Source: Deltaproteobacteria bacterium (GTDB lineage: Bacteria > Desulfobacterota > Desulfobulbia > Desulfobulbales > SURF-16). From it: DNA of 34,349 bases. A program made the translations under genes and the position numbers. The notes below the pieces were generated by a model. The model made no database searches. It was not told the origin of the DNA and was given only the letters and a program-made list of their open reading frames with translations. The stretch lies in NCBI GenBank assembly GCA_016208225.1, contig JACQYM010000167.1:1-34349 (forward strand), read 5' to 3'. This document shows positions 1-8,228 of this stretch, one piece after another. Position 1 is the stretch's first letter, and each line of letters begins with the position of its first letter.

Positions 1-246
1 GGGAACCGTAACGAAAGAGTTCCAAGGGACTTGGAAATTTTAAAAATACCGGGTGTTTTGAGAATCTGGATTCCGGCTAAAAACACGCCGGAATGACGGA
101 CTTCTCAAGACAAGATAAACGGTATATCAACAATTGCTGAATCCCTAAAAAAAGCGGGGATTTCGTAACGGCTCCTGAACCGGCTTCAATTTTTTACTCT
201 TGCAACGGGATGCAGTTAGCGTGTAACAAACAATCTTGAGGGAGAG

Positions 247-1263
247 ATGAAGATGTGGGACAGCAATAAATCTCTCAATGATATCAATTCATATCTGCCT
301 GATCCACTGCTGCGGGTCCCGCAGGTTGTCACCGGCAATAAAACAGCCCTGTGGCCCGGACGGTTCCCGCCCGGCGGCAAGGGTGTAAAAACCATGAAAA
401 AAATCGTTCAGTGGGCCAGTCGGACTTTTCATCCTGATCAGAAATCCGGTCCGGGTGTGCCGTTCGCCACCCTCTTCAGCAGATTTCAAAAAATATTGTC
501 ATTGAACAACCTGACCCTGGAATTGATTGCCGAGGCCAACGACAAACAGGGCGGCCATTATGTCTTTGATCAGCAGTACATCCGCTCCATCTGCCATCAA
601 CTGGCGGACAATGTGCACCAGCTGATCTACAATCTCGAAGCCCTGGCGCCGCACAAATATGTGGCCCTGCATGGCGTTTTCAGCGGGATCTATGAGGTTA
701 TTGAAAAAGAGCTGGCCGGCCGCCTGGTGATAGAGGGCTCCGATATCGTCATGCCCTATGAACGGGTGAGCCGGGAGTATATCAACGTTGTGGGCGGCAA
801 AAACGCCCGCCTGGCTGAAATGAAGCAGATTCTCGGTCTCCGCGTCCCGGCAGGCTTTGCCATCACAACCCGGGCCTTCCAGTTGTTTATGGATGACAAC
901 GACCTGTGGCCGAAGGTGCTGAAGATTGCCGACGACTGGCGGCAGAACAAACTCACCGGGGAACAGGCGGCGGCGGAAATCAGACCGCTCATCAGCAATG
1001 CCGTTGTTCCGGCGGCCATCAGAAAGGCGGTGCAGTCGGAACTGGCGCATCTGCATGAACTGAGGGGGACGAAATATCTTTATCTGGCAGTGCGCAGCAG
1101 CGCCTGGGGCGAGGACAGCGAGCTTTCCTTTGCCGGCCAGTATCTGAGCCTGCTGAATGTGGCGGAGGACAACCTGTTTGAGTGCTACAAGGAAGTCATT
1201 GCCAGCGCCTTTTCCGCCACTGCCATGGAATACAGAAGAGCAAACGGTTTCGGCGATCAGTAG
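247..1263 (+). CDS. PEP synthase-like / PEP-pyruvate-binding (ATP-grasp) N-terminal part, ended by an in-frame TAG
   Basis: Contains VGGKNARLAEM...VPAGFAITTRAF and VRSSAWGEDSELSFAGQYLS, typical of the PPDK/PEP-synthase ATP-binding domain, after a ~170 aa helical N-terminal extension. Stops at TAG 1261-1263; same reading frame resumes at 1264. Confidence 0.85.
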   Translation: MKMWDSNKSLNDINSYLPDPLLRVPQVVTGNKTALWPGRFPPGGKGVKTMKKIVQWASRTFHPDQKSGPGVPFATLFSRFQKILSLNNLTLELIAEANDKQGGHYVFDQQYIRSICHQLADNVHQLIYNLEALAPHKYVALHGVFSGIYEVIEKELAGRLVIEGSDIVMPYERVSREYINVVGGKNARLAEMKQILGLRVPAGFAITTRAFQLFMDDNDLWPKVLKIADDWRQNKLTGEQAAAEIRPLISNAVVPAAIRKAVQSELAHLHELRGTKYLYLAVRSSAWGEDSELSFAGQYLSLLNVAEDNLFECYKEVIASAFSATAMEYRRANGFGDQ

Positions 1264-1269
1264 CTGGCC

Positions 1270-2967
1270 ATGTCCGTAGCCTGCCAGACCATGGTCAATG
1301 CCGCGGTGAGCGGGGTCATCTACACCATCGCCCCCTCCCCGGCCCGGCAGGACAACATGATGATCTCCGCCGCCTGGGGCTTGGGGGAACCGGTGGTATC
1401 CGGGGAAATCAGCGCCGACCAGTACACCGTGACCCGGCGGAAACCGCACAGGATTTCCGCCGTCAGCCTGGTGCGCAAGCCAAGGAAACTCTCCCTCCGG
1501 CCAGACGGGGGCACCGTCATGCGGGCGGTGCATGATTCTTTTAACAGCAATGCCTGCCTGACCAATGAGCAGGTCATCCGCCTGGCCACTGCGGCCATGG
1601 AGATCGAGCAGTTTTTCCGCTCCCACATGGATATCGAATTCGCCTTTGACCAGCAGGGCGAGCTGATCATCCTGCAGGCCCGGCCGCTGCATGTGACGCT
1701 GCAGACCACGGAACAGGTCTGTGACATTGCCGCCATTGTGAAAAAATATCCGGTGCTCATGCAGGACTGCGGGCTGATCGCCCAGAAAGGGATCGCCGCC
1801 GGCCCGGTTTTTGTGGTGCGCAGCAGCGCCGACCTGGACAATTTCCCCAGCGGCTCCGTGCTGGTCGCCAAATACGCTTCGCCCCTCTATGCCAAGGTGA
1901 TGAAAAAGGCGAGCGGGATCATCACCGATGTGGGCGCCGCCACCTGCCATATGGCAACCATTGCCAGGGAATACCGGGTGCCGACCATCGTCAATACCGG
2001 CAATGCCACCGAACTGCTCAAAACCGGCCAGGAGATTACCATCGATGCCGAGGAAAACGTCATCTATGCGGGCACCATCGATGCCCTCTGCTTCTACGGA
2101 CTGACCACGGAACGGCTGGAAGAGACTTACGAATACAGACTGCTCAGACGGGTGCTGAAAAAAATCGAACCTCTCTCCCTGGTGGACCCGACGGCCCCCG
2201 AATTCAAACCGGAAAACTGCAGGAGTTTTCATGACATCATCAGGTTCGTGCATGAAAAGGCGGTGGACGAACTCATCGATCTCCATTACAGCCAGCGTCA
2301 CGACCCCAAGGCAATAGCCGGCAAACTGCGATGGGATCTGCCCCTGGATATGGTGCTCATCGACATCGGCGGCGGACTTGCCGCCCCGGCTGGGGTCAAT
2401 ACCATCAACATCGGCCAGATCACCTCGCTTCCCATGCTGGCATTCGTGCAGGGTCTGGACAGCCCCGGGGCATGGGACAATGAACCGCTGTCCATTGACC
2501 TCGGCAGTTTCATGTCAAGCCTGACCAGGACCTTGCCCACCGAACTTGCCGGCCCCAGATATGTGGGCCAGAACCTGGCCGTCATCTCAAAGGAATATGC
2601 CAACATCAGTCTGCGGCTGGGCTATCATTTCAGCATGGTTGACGCCTATGTTTCCGAGAATTTCAATGACAGCTACATCTATTTCCGCTTTGTCGGCGGG
2701 GTGACCGATACAACCAGGCGGGCCAGAAGGGCGCAGCTGCTGCAGAAAATTCTGGCGGAAAACGATTTCATGGTTGAGGTGCATGATGACCTGGTGGTGG
2801 CGAGGATCAAGAAGCTGCCGGCGGCCGAGATTATTCGCAAAATCAGGCTGCTCGGCCTGCTGGTGGGCTTTTCCCGCCAGCTCGACGTCCTGCTGGTCAG
2901 CGATCAGCACATCAACCAGTTCGTCTCCGCCTTTGAGATGCTGGCCAAAAAGAATATCACTCAATGA
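1270..2967 (+). CDS. Continuation of the PEP synthase-like protein: rest of ATP-binding domain, PEP-utilising mobile (His) domain, novel ~270 aa C-terminal domain
   Basis: Same frame as 247..1263; LAMSVACQTMVNAAVSGVIYT continues the ATP-binding domain; ASGIITDVGAATCHMATIAREYRVPTIVNTG is the phosphohistidine swivelling domain; no TIM-barrel PEP_C domain. No obvious Shine-Dalgarno before ATG 1270. Confidence 0.8.
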   Translation: MSVACQTMVNAAVSGVIYTIAPSPARQDNMMISAAWGLGEPVVSGEISADQYTVTRRKPHRISAVSLVRKPRKLSLRPDGGTVMRAVHDSFNSNACLTNEQVIRLATAAMEIEQFFRSHMDIEFAFDQQGELIILQARPLHVTLQTTEQVCDIAAIVKKYPVLMQDCGLIAQKGIAAGPVFVVRSSADLDNFPSGSVLVAKYASPLYAKVMKKASGIITDVGAATCHMATIAREYRVPTIVNTGNATELLKTGQEITIDAEENVIYAGTIDALCFYGLTTERLEETYEYRLLRRVLKKIEPLSLVDPTAPEFKPENCRSFHDIIRFVHEKAVDELIDLHYSQRHDPKAIAGKLRWDLPLDMVLIDIGGGLAAPAGVNTINIGQITSLPMLAFVQGLDSPGAWDNEPLSIDLGSFMSSLTRTLPTELAGPRYVGQNLAVISKEYANISLRLGYHFSMVDAYVSENFNDSYIYFRFVGGVTDTTRRARRAQLLQKILAENDFMVEVHDDLVVARIKKLPAAEIIRKIRLLGLLVGFSRQLDVLLVSDQHINQFVSAFEMLAKKNITQ

Positions 2968-3000
2968 TTTAATGATTTAATGATAGAGGGAGATACTACC

Positions 3001-3417
3001 ATGACTATTCAGCAGACAACCATTCTACTTCTGGACGATGAACCCATTGTCAGCAAACGACTGAAACCGTCCCTGGAAAAAAACGGCTACGCGGTGGAAA
3101 CCTTCACCAGAAGCGTCGATGCCCTCTCCCGCATCAGGGAAAAGGAATTCGACATTGTCATCACCGACCTGAAAATGGAAGGCGTCAACGGCATGGAATT
3201 TCTGACCGAGGTGAAAAGGCGTTCGCCGGCAACCGAAGTCATCGTCATTACCGGCTTTGCCACCATGGAGACGGCCCGGCAGTCCTTCAGCAAAGGTGTT
3301 TTCGATTTTATGGCCAAACCCTTCAAGCTCGGGGAGATCCTGGCGGTCATCCGTAAAGCGGAAATGAAACGCAACAAAGATGGCAGGGTTGAAGCCGCAG
3401 CCCTTTCCGCCCCCTGA
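3001..3417 (+). CDS. Single-domain response regulator (CheY-like receiver)
   Basis: ILLLDDEPIVSKRL, VITDLKMEGVNGMEFL, VIVITGFATMETA, DFMAKPF receiver motifs; start set at ATG 3001. Confidence 0.9.
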   Translation: MTIQQTTILLLDDEPIVSKRLKPSLEKNGYAVETFTRSVDALSRIREKEFDIVITDLKMEGVNGMEFLTEVKRRSPATEVIVITGFATMETARQSFSKGVFDFMAKPFKLGEILAVIRKAEMKRNKDGRVEAAALSAP

Positions 3418-3705: not shown

Positions 3706-4149
3706 ATGTTCAGAAGACTCAATGACATTGACAGAATTTTCGGCACCATGGATTTCTTCAAGAATCAGATGAACAGATTTTTTGAAGATTACGAAAGCGG
3801 CCGAGGAAATCTTACCCAGGGCGGGGTATGGCCGCCCACCAATTTTTATGACGACGGCGAGGCGATATTCGTTTACTGCGTCCTGCCCGGCATGAACGAA
3901 AACGAGGTGAATATCAAACTGCAGAACAACCTGCTCACCATTAAAGGGGAGCGCAAGGCAACCATGCCGGAAGGGTACGCCATTCTGCGGCAGGAACGCA
4001 ATGTGACCCCCTTTTCCCGAAGCTTCACCCTGCCCGTGGAAATCGACACGGAAAAGACCACTGCCACCTTAAAAAACGGCATCCTGACCGTGAAGCTGGT
4101 GAAAGCCCAGGCGGTAAAACCCAAAAAAATCATGGTGCAGGCCGCATAA
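3706..4149 (+). CDS. Hsp20/alpha-crystallin family small heat shock protein
   Basis: ACD motifs: PTNFYDDGEAIFVYCVLPGMNENEVNIKLQNNLLTIKGER and LKNGILTVKLVKA. Confidence 0.93.
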   Translation: MFRRLNDIDRIFGTMDFFKNQMNRFFEDYESGRGNLTQGGVWPPTNFYDDGEAIFVYCVLPGMNENEVNIKLQNNLLTIKGERKATMPEGYAILRQERNVTPFSRSFTLPVEIDTEKTTATLKNGILTVKLVKAQAVKPKKIMVQAA

Positions 4150-4684: not shown

Positions 4685-5794
4685 TTATTCCTGCCCGTCC
4701 GATTCTTCATCGATTTTCCGCAGACCATCCATCAGCAGTTTCATAAAGGGGGCAAGGGGGGGGGCACCCATCTCTTCCAGAGAAATGGAGGATGAAAACT
4801 TGAAACCGCCCTTCTGCTCCCTGATCATCTCGTAAAATGCGGCAACGCCGTCGAGCCCCCGGTAACGCGCCCGCACGACCTCTCCTTCGCTGAAGGTGAC
4901 CGAGGCGGGTCCCTCGCTCAGATCAAGTCCGACAATACCGGTTTTGCTGTTTTCATTCAGCATCTGGAATAGTTCCGCCGGCGGCAGTTCAGCCAGCTGT
5001 CCGGTGAAGGCCAAAGACATCTTTTCCGCGTGGCTGGCGTTCGTCTCCGCCAGGCGCTGGACGAGCAGACGGGTAAAGGCCATCTGCAGAAAAGGGTGCC
5101 TGATCAGGATCTGGCTTAAATCCTTGCCGGAAAGCGTCAGAATTTTCACCGGCTCAACGGCCTTGATGGAAGCGCAGACCGGCTGGCCGCTGAAGAGGCT
5201 CATCTCGCCGAAAATTTCGCCCGGGCCAAGCAGGGCGATGGTCAAATCATTTTGATTCAGCACCGCCACCCTGCCGGACACGATAAAGTACAAATAATGG
5301 CCAGGATGACCGCGATGCAGAATAAACTCCTCGGCCCGGAAATTTTTCATGATCAGACAGGAAAAAATGGCCTTCAGACTCTCTTCTTCCAGGACCTGAA
5401 AAAAAGAAAAGGTGTTCATCAGGCTGAAAAGCGACCCCATCCGGCGCGACTGATGCCGATTTTCCGCGGCGGCCAGCATGCGCATCTGCGGGGTGTAAAA
5501 TTTCGCCTCCTCGACATAGGTGAACTTGATCAGCCCGCTGCAGCCGCTGCAGTTGAATTCCTTTTTTTCCCGTCTTTCCCGTTTATCTTCCCGTTCACGC
5601 AGGTCATGACCGGCATCGGCCTCCATTTTCTCCACCACGATCGCGGTAACTTCCCTGGCCAGAAAAAGGCAGGTGGGCTTGGCGGCGGGAGGATGCAGGG
5701 CAACACCGGAAAGACGGAACTCTTCCCCTTCGGCATAGAGCGGACAATCCCTGGCCCCGATTATTTTAAAATGTGCTTCAAGAAGGCTTGCCAT
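4685..5794 (-). CDS. Cyclic-nucleotide-binding domain protein with C-terminal DUF4388 (PATAN) domain and Cys-containing N-terminus
   Basis: cNMP motif PGHYLYFIVSGRVAVL...LLGPGEIFGEMSLFSGQPVCASIKA; C-terminal GQLAELPPAELFQMLNENSKTGIVGLDL...EGEVVRARYRGLDGVAAFYEMI; N-terminal CSGCSG. Confidence 0.85.
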   Translation of the reverse strand: MASLLEAHFKIIGARDCPLYAEGEEFRLSGVALHPPAAKPTCLFLAREVTAIVVEKMEADAGHDLREREDKRERREKKEFNCSGCSGLIKFTYVEEAKFYTPQMRMLAAAENRHQSRRMGSLFSLMNTFSFFQVLEEESLKAIFSCLIMKNFRAEEFILHRGHPGHYLYFIVSGRVAVLNQNDLTIALLGPGEIFGEMSLFSGQPVCASIKAVEPVKILTLSGKDLSQILIRHPFLQMAFTRLLVQRLAETNASHAEKMSLAFTGQLAELPPAELFQMLNENSKTGIVGLDLSEGPASVTFSEGEVVRARYRGLDGVAAFYEMIREQKGGFKFSSSISLEEMGAPPLAPFMKLLMDGLRKIDEESDGQE

Positions 5795-5981: not shown

Positions 5982-6725
5982 TCATCTGGTCAGGGCAAGC
6001 AGGGTAACCGCAAGATAGAAGATCAACCAGCCGAGAGTAAACCGTCTGGCCCGGCGGCCCCACGTCCGGTTCACCTGGAGAAAGGAGAGGGCCGCCACCA
6101 GCAGCAGGGGGACCGCTTTCATGGGTTCCATCGGCGCATTCAGCGCCAGGGGCACCGCCAGAATGGCCAGCACCAGCCAGCCGTGTTCGGCGATCTGCAC
6201 CTTGTAGCGGCGCAGATGGTCCCAGGCAAAAACCAGCCATAAAACCACCAGACCGATCACATGGTTGGCATAGACCCGTTTCATCCCCTCCTCGCTGATG
6301 GCAAACAGAACGGAATTCACCAGAGAGCCGACCAGGGGGATGGCCAGGCAGATGTTTTCCGCAATCAGGCCGGCCGACTCGCCGGTGGCGTCCGCCCGCA
6401 GCACGTAGCCGGTGAACAGCAGCAGCAGGGCCACCGGCATGGAGGCCATGAGCCACATCCATTTCCACAGGGACAGACGATCCGGCGCCTCGACCAGGAT
6501 GGCTACCAGATGGACAGCGGAGAGCAGGAAAAAGATCTGGCTTGAATAAAAATGCAGGGAACGCCAGAAAGCGCCGAAGGGAATGAGCAGATCAATGGAG
6601 GTGGCGGAATAGAATGGATGGGCCGCATCATACTGCAGGGCCACGACGATGCCTGACAGGATGGAAATGTACAGGGCGATGAGGCTATTCGCCCCCCATT
6701 TTGTCTCAAGCAGCAAACGCTTCAT
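5982..6725 (-). CDS. Cytochrome b/b6-type N-terminal domain protein
   Basis: H-X13-H (LHFYSSQIFFLLSAVHL) and H-X14-H (NHVIGLVVLWLVFAWDH) heme ligand pairs in predicted helices; follows the Rieske gene. Confidence 0.88.
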   Translation of the reverse strand: MKRLLLETKWGANSLIALYISILSGIVVALQYDAAHPFYSATSIDLLIPFGAFWRSLHFYSSQIFFLLSAVHLVAILVEAPDRLSLWKWMWLMASMPVALLLLFTGYVLRADATGESAGLIAENICLAIPLVGSLVNSVLFAISEEGMKRVYANHVIGLVVLWLVFAWDHLRRYKVQIAEHGWLVLAILAVPLALNAPMEPMKAVPLLLVAALSFLQVNRTWGRRARRFTLGWLIFYLAVTLLALTR

Positions 6726-6740
6726 GGTCAGTGTCCGGCA

Positions 6741-7151
6741 TCAGAGGGATACAATATAGCCCTTGCCGTTTCCTTCACTAATCCGTTCCACGGCAAAGAG
6801 CGGCAGATTCCTCTTCGCCGGTCCGGCCACCCGCTCGCCTCTGGTGGTGAACATGCTCTGATGGCAGGGACAGATAAGCAGATGGTCCTTTTCACTGAAG
6901 TTCAGCCGGCAGCCGAGATGGGTGCAGGTACGGGATACCGCCCAGGTGTCCGCGGCATCATGAAAAAGGACAAATTCCTGATCAAGATAGACATCGCCGA
7001 CTTTCAGCTGTTTCTCAACCTTGACCAGTCGCGGTTTCTTCGGCACCTGAAAGCGGACAAAACGGAAAAGCGGATAGCAGAGGGTTGCAGCGGCGGCAAG
7101 TTGAATCCAGGTCCACCCGTTCCGCAGAAATGACCTTCGCCGCTCCGTCAT
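6741..7151 (-). CDS. Rieske 2Fe-2S protein
   Basis: CTHLGC...CPCHQS cluster-binding motifs; N-terminal membrane anchor. Confidence 0.93.
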   Translation of the reverse strand: MTERRRSFLRNGWTWIQLAAAATLCYPLFRFVRFQVPKKPRLVKVEKQLKVGDVYLDQEFVLFHDAADTWAVSRTCTHLGCRLNFSEKDHLLICPCHQSMFTTRGERVAGPAKRNLPLFAVERISEGNGKGYIVSL

Positions 7152-7165
7152 GCCTCTCTACCCCA

Positions 7166-7690
7166 TTACTTTGCCAGAAAACATTGCCGCAGCTTCTCAC
7201 AGACATGGTCCGGCACCAGGCCGCTGACATCGCCGCCATGGCGCGCCGCCTCCTTGATGATGCTTGAACTGATATAGATCCAGCGAAATCCGGTCATCAG
7301 AAAAACGGTTTCCACCTCGCGCTCGATGCGGCGATTCATCAAGGCCAGCTGAAATTCATAGTCAAAATCAGAGACGGCCCGCAGACCACGAACAATGGCC
7401 TTGGCCCCTTTGGTATAGGCGTAATCCACCAGCAGCCCTTTCACCGCGGTCACCTCAATCCTTTTTTCATCGGCCGGAAAACAGTCCCGGATCATCTGCA
7501 GGCGCTCATCAAGGGAAAAGAGCGTTTTTTTCGCCACATTTTCCGCCACCGCCACCACCACCCGGTCAAACAGATGGAGGGCGCGCTGGATAATGTCCAG
7601 ATGGCCCATGGTGATCGGGTCGAATGATCCGGGATAGACGGCAATGGATTCCGCCACATCAGGGGCCACAAACGGCTGGTATTCACTCAC
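7166..7690 (-). CDS. coaD: Pantetheine-phosphate adenylyltransferase
   Basis: [62 protein letters not shown]. Confidence 0.95.
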
Positions 7691-7712
7691 GGCATGTTCC
7701 TCTTCTGTTTAT

Positions 7713-7795
7713 GGAGTCAGGAGTCAGAATCCAGGAGTCAGAAAGCGGAGTAATCTTCCGGCTTCTCACTCCTGACTCCTGACTCCTGGCTCCTG
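7713..7795. repeat. Heptanucleotide (GGAGTCA)n inverted-repeat hairpin between coaD and rsmD
   Basis: ggagtcaggagtcagaatccaggagtcagaa (7713-7743) versus ttctcactcctgactcctgactcc (from 7763), ~19-nt loop. Confidence 0.8.
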
Positions 7796-8228
7796 GCTTC
7801 CGTATCAGCTTCCCCCTGCACATAAAACCAGAAGCCGGCCTCGCCGTACGAGCGCCGGTCCACCAGGGTAAAAAGCGAAACCGCCTCGGGCAGCCGGTCG
7901 GCAGCGCTAGCTTCAGCCACCAGCATGCCGCCGGGGCTGACGACTTCCACCCGGCCCAGTTCCCGGATGATCCTTTCCGCCTGTTGGCTTTTATAAGGCG
8001 GATCAATAAATACCAAAAGAGGGCTGATGCGGCCCCCCGGCTCAGCGCTTCCAGACCAAGGGCGCCGGTGCCGGCAAAGAGATCGAGCACCCTGGCTTCG
8101 ATTGCCCTGTCGGCCAGGATGCTGAAGAGCGCCTCCCTGGCCCGGTCGGAGGTGGGCCTGATATCAGAGGTGCCGCTGCCGGGTGAAAAAAGTCTGCGGC
8201 CCCTGGCCGTACCGGCAATAATCCGCAT
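7738..8228 (-). pseudogene. rsmD: 16S rRNA (guanine966-N2)-methyltransferase with internal deletion and frame change
   Basis: N-terminal [38 protein letters not shown]...[22 protein letters not shown] in one frame; C-terminal [20 protein letters not shown] in another, joined directly. About 45 expected residues are missing. Confidence 0.75.

What the first reader, a model, noticed from the sequence alone, without database searches (positions are those of the whole stretch)
1264..2967. PEP-synthase-like phosphotransferase with an unrecognised C-terminal domain instead of the PEP/pyruvate barrel
ATP-grasp and phosphohistidine (GAATCHMATIAREY) domains are present, but the usual C-terminal TIM barrel is replaced by ~270 aa with a conserved-looking core: LPLDMVLIDIGGGL, GRYVGQ-like GPRYVGQNLAVISKEYANISLRLGYHFSMVDAYVSENFNDSYIYFRFVGGVTDTTRRARRAQLL. 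By analogy to rifampicin phosphotransferase (ATP-grasp + His domain + a dedicated acceptor domain), it may phosphorylate a different acceptor.
Basis: partly seen in the sequence, partly recalled or inferred. Interest (0 to 1): 0.65.

Follow-up and report, generated by a model that had tools for sequence, protein, structure and literature searches.

The report
Barrel-less PEP-synthase-like protein of sulfate reducers
The gene makes a relative of PEP synthase that keeps the ATP-using and phosphate-carrying parts but ends in a conserved, unnamed domain; it belongs to a widespread but barely studied gene set of sulfate-reducing bacteria that probably controls uptake of sulfur compounds (and, by accident, of nitrate).

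Summary
The gene runs 247-2967 (+) and is cut by an in-frame TAG at 1261-1263, in a column that is mostly Glu in relatives; the finding's ORF is the 3' part. Read through, the ~905-aa protein has a 165-aa N-terminal extension, a complete PPS-type ATP-grasp, the phosphohistidine domain (His568) and a ~295-aa C-terminal region without any Pfam, NCBIfam or PDB sequence match. AlphaFold gives two mixed alpha/beta lobes, not a TIM barrel; the second resembles YbjN/type III chaperone folds, below significance. This architecture defines a family in 107 of 297 Desulfobacterota genomes, 105 of which carry dsrA. C-terminal H662-D663 is invariant in 155 sequences, even in a clade whose ATP site is destroyed. 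The window's subfamily sits in a conserved module: TSUP permease, PF09608 protein, this gene, a CheY-like regulator, Usp proteins and usually a histidine kinase/NtrC pair. A sister subfamily matches, gene for gene, the Desulfovibrio 'nitrate cluster' (DVU0251-DVU0245), where disrupting DVU0246 gives nitrate resistance. So this is an uncharacterised phosphotransfer protein of an anion-transport signalling module rather than a rifampicin-phosphotransferase analogue. The acceptor is unproven, and this copy may be broken or misassembled.

The parts
247..2967 (+). whole gene (interrupted by one in-frame TAG): PPS-like phosphotransferase, ~905 aa if read through
   Evidence: same-frame ORFs 247-1263 and 1270-2967 carry adjacent parts of PPDK_N; orthologs are single uninterrupted ORFs of 869-929 aa in four same-genus genomes
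247..741 (+). N-terminal extension (~165 aa), unassigned, moderately conserved (F80, L84 nearly invariant)
   Evidence: no Pfam match; present in family alignment
748..1701 (+). PPS-type ATP-grasp domain (PPDK_N), residues ~168-485; ATP-site residues K185, R283, E289, E464, Q477, R479 present
   Evidence: Pfam PF01326 in both halves; alignment to solved PPS and RPH; family-wide conservation
1261..1263 (+). in-frame TAG stop, in a column that is E in 26, D in 13 of 52 relatives
   Evidence: sequence; alignment; no pyrrolysyl-tRNA synthetase above cut-off in the genome
1771..2070 (+). phosphohistidine swivelling domain (PEP-utilizers), His568 in TCHMATIARE
   Evidence: Pfam PF00391 E 1.4e-21; His in 152 of 155 family members
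2077..2964 (+). conserved unnamed C-terminal region (~295 aa), two lobes
   Evidence: no Pfam/NCBIfam/PDB sequence match; 50-sequence alignment A1; model pLDDT 79.5
2218..2256 (+). C-x3-H-D-x2-R-x2-H-E motif (CRSFHDIIRFVHE; C658, H662, D663, R666, H669, E670)
   Evidence: H662 and D663 invariant in 155 of 155 sequences
2482..2964 (+). C-terminal lobe 2 with RLGYHF, FRFVGG and LLVGFSRQLD motifs; predicted bbbb-a-bb-a-a, YbjN/T3S-chaperone-like
   Evidence: model pLDDT 84.4; Foldseek best E 0.006, probability 0.96-0.97, not significant at 0.001
2980..3417 (+). single-domain CheY-like response regulator, conserved partner gene
   Evidence: Pfam PF00072 E 6.6e-28; phospho-acceptor and active-site residues conserved; next to the family gene in 65 of 67 testable orthologous loci
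3706..4149 (+). Hsp20 chaperone, downstream neighbour (genus-level)
   Evidence: Pfam PF00011; same order in the same-genus locus L024
4207..4644 (+). second Hsp20
   Evidence: Pfam PF00011; same order in L024

Best explanation
The family is a PEP-synthase-derived phosphotransfer protein that lost the PEP/pyruvate barrel. It works as a signalling or regulatory component of a TSUP-type anion transport module of dissimilatory sulfur metabolizers. Proposed mechanism: the ATP-grasp domain phosphorylates His568 (inferred from complete conservation of the ATP site and the His); the swivelling His domain delivers the phosphate to the C-terminal lobe that carries the invariant H662-D663/R666/H669-E670 helix, or directly to the co-encoded receiver protein (inferred). 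The output sets the activity or expression of the TSUP permease and associated sensor genes (inferred). Shown: architecture, conservation, module membership, association with dsrA, gene-for-gene match of a sister subfamily with the Desulfovibrio nitrate cluster. In the window's genome the gene carries a nonsense codon, so this copy is either decaying or affected by an assembly error.
For: ATP-site residues and His568 conserved in most of 155 members, H662/D663 in all. A nine-member clade (one origin, SH support 100) has destroyed its ATP site but keeps His568 and the C-terminal motif: such a protein can receive phosphate from elsewhere but cannot use ATP, which suits a relay and fits a self-contained kinase poorly. 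The receiver gene directly follows the family gene in 65 of 67 loci of the window's subfamily, often with overlapping stop and start; a TSUP permease is upstream in 67 of 67. NtrC and histidine kinase genes recur in most of these loci. Sister subfamilies sit next to protein phosphatases: DSP-type or calcineurin-like. L146 has the order TSUP, unknown, PtxB-like, histidine kinase, receiver, family protein, DSP phosphatase, the published order DVU0251-DVU0245; transposon mutants of DVU0246, 0247, 0250 and 0251 are all nitrate resistant and a leaky thiosulfate transporter was proposed (PMC4001038). 105 of 107 family-positive Desulfobacterota genomes carry dsrA. Lobe 2 resembles protein-binding YbjN/T3S-chaperone folds (PMC3575483).
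Against: No phosphotransfer has been measured for any member here or in the papers found. The Foldseek match of lobe 2 is not significant (best E 0.006). The dsrA association is not corrected for phylogeny, and 40 dsrA-positive genomes lack the family. An ATP-dead clade can also mean regulatory pseudoenzymes. The receiver could be a regulator of the enzyme rather than its phosphate acceptor. Paralogs without a neighbouring receiver exist.
Confidence: 0.5

Rival explanations
1. RPH-like enzyme: ATP-grasp and His domain phosphorylate a small molecule bound by the C-terminal domain, for example an organic acid, sulfonate or xenobiotic imported by the TSUP permease.
For: Complete dikinase-type ATP site and His; RPH, PigC and RedH models hit the ATP-grasp part; TSUP permease next door; invariant C-terminal polar residues could be a substrate site.
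Against: Domain order differs from RPH. The ATP-dead clade keeps the C-terminal motif. Constant company of receiver domains, histidine kinases and protein phosphatases, with no metabolic enzyme conserved.
Confidence: 0.2
2. Energy-coupling enzyme of sulfate activation: a PPS/PPDK relative that handles AMP, pyrophosphate or phosphate, or a sulfur oxyanion, rather than pyruvate.
For: Near-exclusive occurrence in dsrA-positive genomes; PPS/PPDK chemistry interconverts ATP and AMP (established knowledge).
Against: Up to nine diverged copies per genome, one clade ATP-dead; neighbours are signalling and transport genes, not sat, apr or dsr.
Confidence: 0.12
3. The window copy is a broken or misassembled gene and has no function in this organism, whatever the family does.
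For: In-frame TAG in the middle of the ATP-grasp domain; no pyrrolysyl-tRNA synthetase above cut-off; the contig ends 246 bases upstream while the PF09608/TSUP genes lie at the end of another contig, both ends holding a similar short repeat; rsmD on the same contig is also damaged.
Against: All 67 highly conserved columns are intact in the window protein, so the change is very recent or a sequencing or assembly error; ATG 1270 just after the TAG could allow reinitiation.
Confidence: 0.45
4. The C-terminal region is a diverged PEP/pyruvate TIM barrel.
For: It occupies the position of the barrel and has a similar length.
Against: Predicted secondary structure is mixed with long antiparallel strands; no PEP-utilizers_C match in 50 members; no barrel among the listed Foldseek hits.
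Confidence: 0.03

Closest known systems
Phosphoenolpyruvate synthase (PpsA; TIGR01418, PRK06464)
   Same: ATP-grasp and phosphohistidine domains in the same order; best PDB matches 8a8e, 9dae, 2ols over residues 168-614
   Different: PEP/pyruvate barrel absent; scores far below the PPS cut-offs; 165-aa N-terminal extension; unnamed C-terminal region
Rifampicin phosphotransferase (RPH; 5hv1, 5fbs)
   Same: PPS-derived enzyme with a dedicated non-barrel domain; same ATP-site residues
   Different: RPH order is ATP-grasp, acceptor domain, His; here His precedes the extra domain; signalling neighbourhood
DVU0246 / Dde_0604 of the Desulfovibrio 'nitrate cluster' (PMC4001038)
   Same: Annotated with PPDK_N and PEP-utilizers mobile domains, no barrel listed; same neighbour classes (TauE/TSUP, histidine kinase, receiver)
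   Different: Sister subfamily with DSP phosphatase and PtxB-like neighbours; the window's subfamily has PF09608 and Usp instead; DVU0246 sequence itself not compared here
Enzyme I of the PTS
   Same: Swivelling phosphohistidine domain used to phosphorylate other proteins
   Different: EI uses PEP through a barrel and has no ATP-grasp
[quoted passage not shown]
   Same: Predicted topology of lobe 2 and weak Foldseek hits
   Different: No sequence similarity, E-values not significant, fused to a phosphotransferase

Membership tests
PEP synthase (pyruvate, water dikinase) | PPS-type ATP-grasp domain with ATP-site residues | tested here: met
   PF01326 in both halves; residues conserved
PEP synthase (pyruvate, water dikinase) | phosphohistidine domain with catalytic His | tested here: met
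   PF00391; His568
PEP synthase (pyruvate, water dikinase) | C-terminal PEP/pyruvate-binding barrel (PEP-utilizers_C) | tested here: not met
   no match; non-barrel model
PEP synthase (pyruvate, water dikinase) | whole-protein equivalog score (TIGR01418 cut-off 739.75 bits) | tested here: not met
   109.9 and 212.5 bits for the two parts
Rifampicin phosphotransferase | order ATP-grasp, acceptor domain, His at C-terminus | tested here: not met
   His domain at 509-606 aligns to 783-879 of 883 in 5hv1
Rifampicin phosphotransferase | equivalog score NF041857 (cut-off 999 bits) | tested here: not met
   84.7 and 120.8 bits for the two parts
Rifampicin phosphotransferase | rifampicin phosphorylation | not testable with these tools
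   needs enzyme assay
Nitrate-cluster PEP-synthase-like family (DVU0246 type) | ATP-grasp + His + this C-terminal region | tested here: met
   L146 family protein has all three within the seven-gene order, as does the window protein; DVU0246 sequence itself not available
Nitrate-cluster PEP-synthase-like family (DVU0246 type) | neighbourhood with TSUP permease and receiver | tested here: met
   receiver at 2980-3417; TSUP and PF09608 genes of the same genome on contig C246
Nitrate-cluster PEP-synthase-like family (DVU0246 type) | DSP phosphatase and PtxB-like neighbours (nitrate-cluster subfamily proper) | tested here: not met
   window gene falls in the separate PF09608+TSUP clade with Hsp20/Usp neighbours
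YbjN / T3S chaperone fold (lobe 2) | significant structural match | tested here: inconclusive
   best E 0.006, probability 0.96-0.97, TM about 0.35

The most novel reading that the evidence does not exclude
A new kind of ATP-fuelled phosphohistidine relay: PPS-derived proteins carry phosphate from an ATP-grasp domain through a swivelling His to a second, invariant His (H662) in a new C-terminal domain and on to single-domain receivers, with ATP-dead paralogs acting as relay intermediates, to control sulfur-oxyanion transport in sulfate reducers.
Probability: 0.2. Interest if true: 0.85.

Novelty: new variant of a known kind. Interest (0 to 1): 0.52.

Why it matters
A family present in over a third of sampled Desulfobacterota genomes, in up to nine copies each and almost only where dsrA is present, has no named domain for a third of its length and no biochemical function. 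A sister subfamily is the gene class whose loss makes Desulfovibrio nitrate resistant, a matter of practical weight in souring control. Knowing that it is a PPS-derived phosphotransfer protein paired with a receiver and a TSUP permease makes the question of how sulfate reducers control anion uptake testable, and the C-terminal region deserves its own domain family.

Tried and rejected
Pyrrolysine read-through of the TAG: no PylS above cut-off in the genome, only general class II synthetase hits (genome 88% complete). Barrel in disguise: rejected. Fusion of the family protein to a receiver as Rosetta-stone evidence: none found; very long frames in one high-GC genome (L155, L156) look like spurious 5' extensions, and two members (L056, L157) only add a ~190-aa C-terminal extension. 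Weak Pfam hits of single members (OB_RNB, CLAMP, ChuX_HutX and others) judged chance: one or two members each. First Foldseek hits to RecJ and AlaRS C-Ala fragments rejected as unspecific (TM 0.2, rmsd above 8). Literature searches for the operon by domain names gave nothing direct until the nitrate-cluster paper.

Full report
What is in the sequence. The ORF named in the finding (1270-2967, +, 565 aa) exists, but it is the 3' part of a longer gene. The ORF just upstream, 247-1263, is in the same frame and ends in TAG at 1261-1263. Its residues 180-336 match PPDK_N profile positions 2-161 and the downstream ORF continues at 167-317, followed by the PEP-utilizers mobile domain. Reading the TAG as a residue gives 906 letters. 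In the alignment with 52 relatives the TAG column is mostly Glu (26) or Asp (13), and orthologs in four same-genus genomes are single uninterrupted ORFs of 869-929 aa. The genome has no pyrrolysyl-tRNA synthetase above the curated cut-off, so suppression as pyrrolysine is unlikely.

State of this copy. The window protein keeps all 67 highly conserved columns of the family, so the stop is either a very recent mutation or a sequencing or assembly error in this metagenome-assembled genome. The window's contig begins 246 bases upstream of the gene. The expected upstream partners (Usp, TSUP, PF09608) were found on another contig, C246, whose end lies just beyond the PF09608 gene; both ends contain a similar short repeat. 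A same-genus genome shows the whole order Usp, TSUP, PF09608, family gene, receiver, Hsp20, Hsp20 (L024), matching the two contigs together. Another gene on the contig, rsmD, is also damaged, which argues for caution about assembly quality.

The C-terminal region. Residues 611-905 match no Pfam or NCBIfam family and no PDB sequence, singly or as a profile of 50 sequences. The AlphaFold model (pLDDT 79.5) is mixed alpha/beta with long antiparallel strands and is not a TIM barrel. The second lobe modelled alone (pLDDT 84.4) has a bbbb-a-bb-a-a order. Its best Foldseek hits are the YbjN homolog 2plg and DR1245 4h5b (E 0.006-0.007, probability 0.96-0.97), with several class I type III secretion chaperones also in the top 30; none is significant at 0.001. 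The DR1245 paper describes this as a shared protein-interaction fold (PMC3575483). I take this as a hint that lobe 2 binds protein.

Conservation. Across 155 near-full-length members the ATP-site residues K185, R283, E289, E464, Q477 and R479 are kept in about 93-95%, His568 in 152, and the C-terminal H662 and D663 in all 155, with H669, H794, R828, D848 and D880 in 154 each. C-terminal lobe 2 is as conserved as the His domain and more than the ATP-grasp. One clade of nine members (a single origin on the tree, SH support 100) has lost the ATP site but keeps His568 and the C-terminal HD motif. These sit as the second family gene, behind a receiver gene, in arrays of three family genes. That pattern suits a phosphorelay with separate phosphate-loading and phosphate-receiving members, though regulatory pseudoenzymes are also possible.

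Distribution. In 297 Desulfobacterota genomes the C-terminal region occurs in 107; a strong dsrA match occurs in 145, and 105 of the 107 are among them (Fisher p about 1e-43, not corrected for shared ancestry).

Neighbourhood. In the window's subfamily a TSUP permease (PF01925) lies upstream in 67 of 67 testable loci that have the PF09608 gene, and a single-domain receiver follows within 260 bases in 65 of 67, often with overlapping stop and start. One or two Usp-like genes and a histidine kinase/NtrC pair recur. The window's own receiver (2980-3417) keeps the canonical residues. Other subfamilies have a dual-specificity-type phosphatase or a calcineurin-like phosphatase next door.

Link to published genetics. 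Korte and co-workers (PMC4001038) described the nitrate cluster DVU0251-DVU0245: TauE/SafE permease, hypothetical, PtxB, histidine kinase, receiver, a protein with PPDK_N and PEP-utilizers mobile domains, and a tyrosine/dual-specificity phosphatase. Transposon mutants of DVU0246, 0247, 0250 and 0251 grew equally with and without 100 mM nitrate; the authors suggested a leaky thiosulfate transporter. In locus L146 (an unnamed Desulfobacterota genome) the same seven gene classes occur in the same order, and the PEP-synthase-like protein there carries this C-terminal region. DVU0246 itself was not available for alignment, so its membership is inferred from gene order, annotation and architecture. 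The family gene of the window belongs to a separate clade of the same family.

Interpretation. The anatomy says ATP-driven phosphorylation of His568 without a PEP/pyruvate site. The company says signalling and anion transport, and the genetics of the sister cluster says that the TSUP permease, the receiver and the PPS-like protein act in one pathway. I therefore favour a phosphotransfer protein that serves this module, with the receiver as partner and the C-terminal HD helix as a possible second phosphate site. Module membership is well supported; the acceptor and the direction of control are inference. The rifampicin-phosphotransferase analogy is possible but has a different domain order and no support from the neighbourhood.

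Noticed in passing
window 7683-8228 (-): rsmD-like 16S rRNA methyltransferase gene is damaged: profile positions 1-69 and 116-181 of PF03602 lie in two frames with about 46 codons missing between them.
   Followed up: partly
window 1-120 and L141 90-195: Both contig ends hold a similar short dispersed repeat (ggattccggct...gccggaatgacg), which probably broke the assembly between the PF09608 gene and the family gene.
   Followed up: partly
L118 7295-9940, L129 7177-9906, L115 7355-10039 and six more: Clade of nine family members with destroyed ATP site but intact phosphohistidine and C-terminal motif, second in arrays of three family genes.
   Followed up: partly
L056 and L157: Two family members carry an extra ~190-aa C-terminal extension that looks like a beta-sandwich (LamG-like) domain by eye.
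   Followed up: no
L026 14478-15275: Downstream 265-aa Usp-like protein (cluster c5) conserved in 60 loci has no Pfam match.
   Followed up: no
window 4685-5794 (-): Protein with a cNMP-binding domain followed by DUF4388, next to the Hsp20 genes.
   Followed up: no
window 5982-7151 (-): Adjacent cytochrome b-like and Rieske genes between a cNMP-binding/DUF4388 gene and a CoaD-like gene.
   Followed up: no
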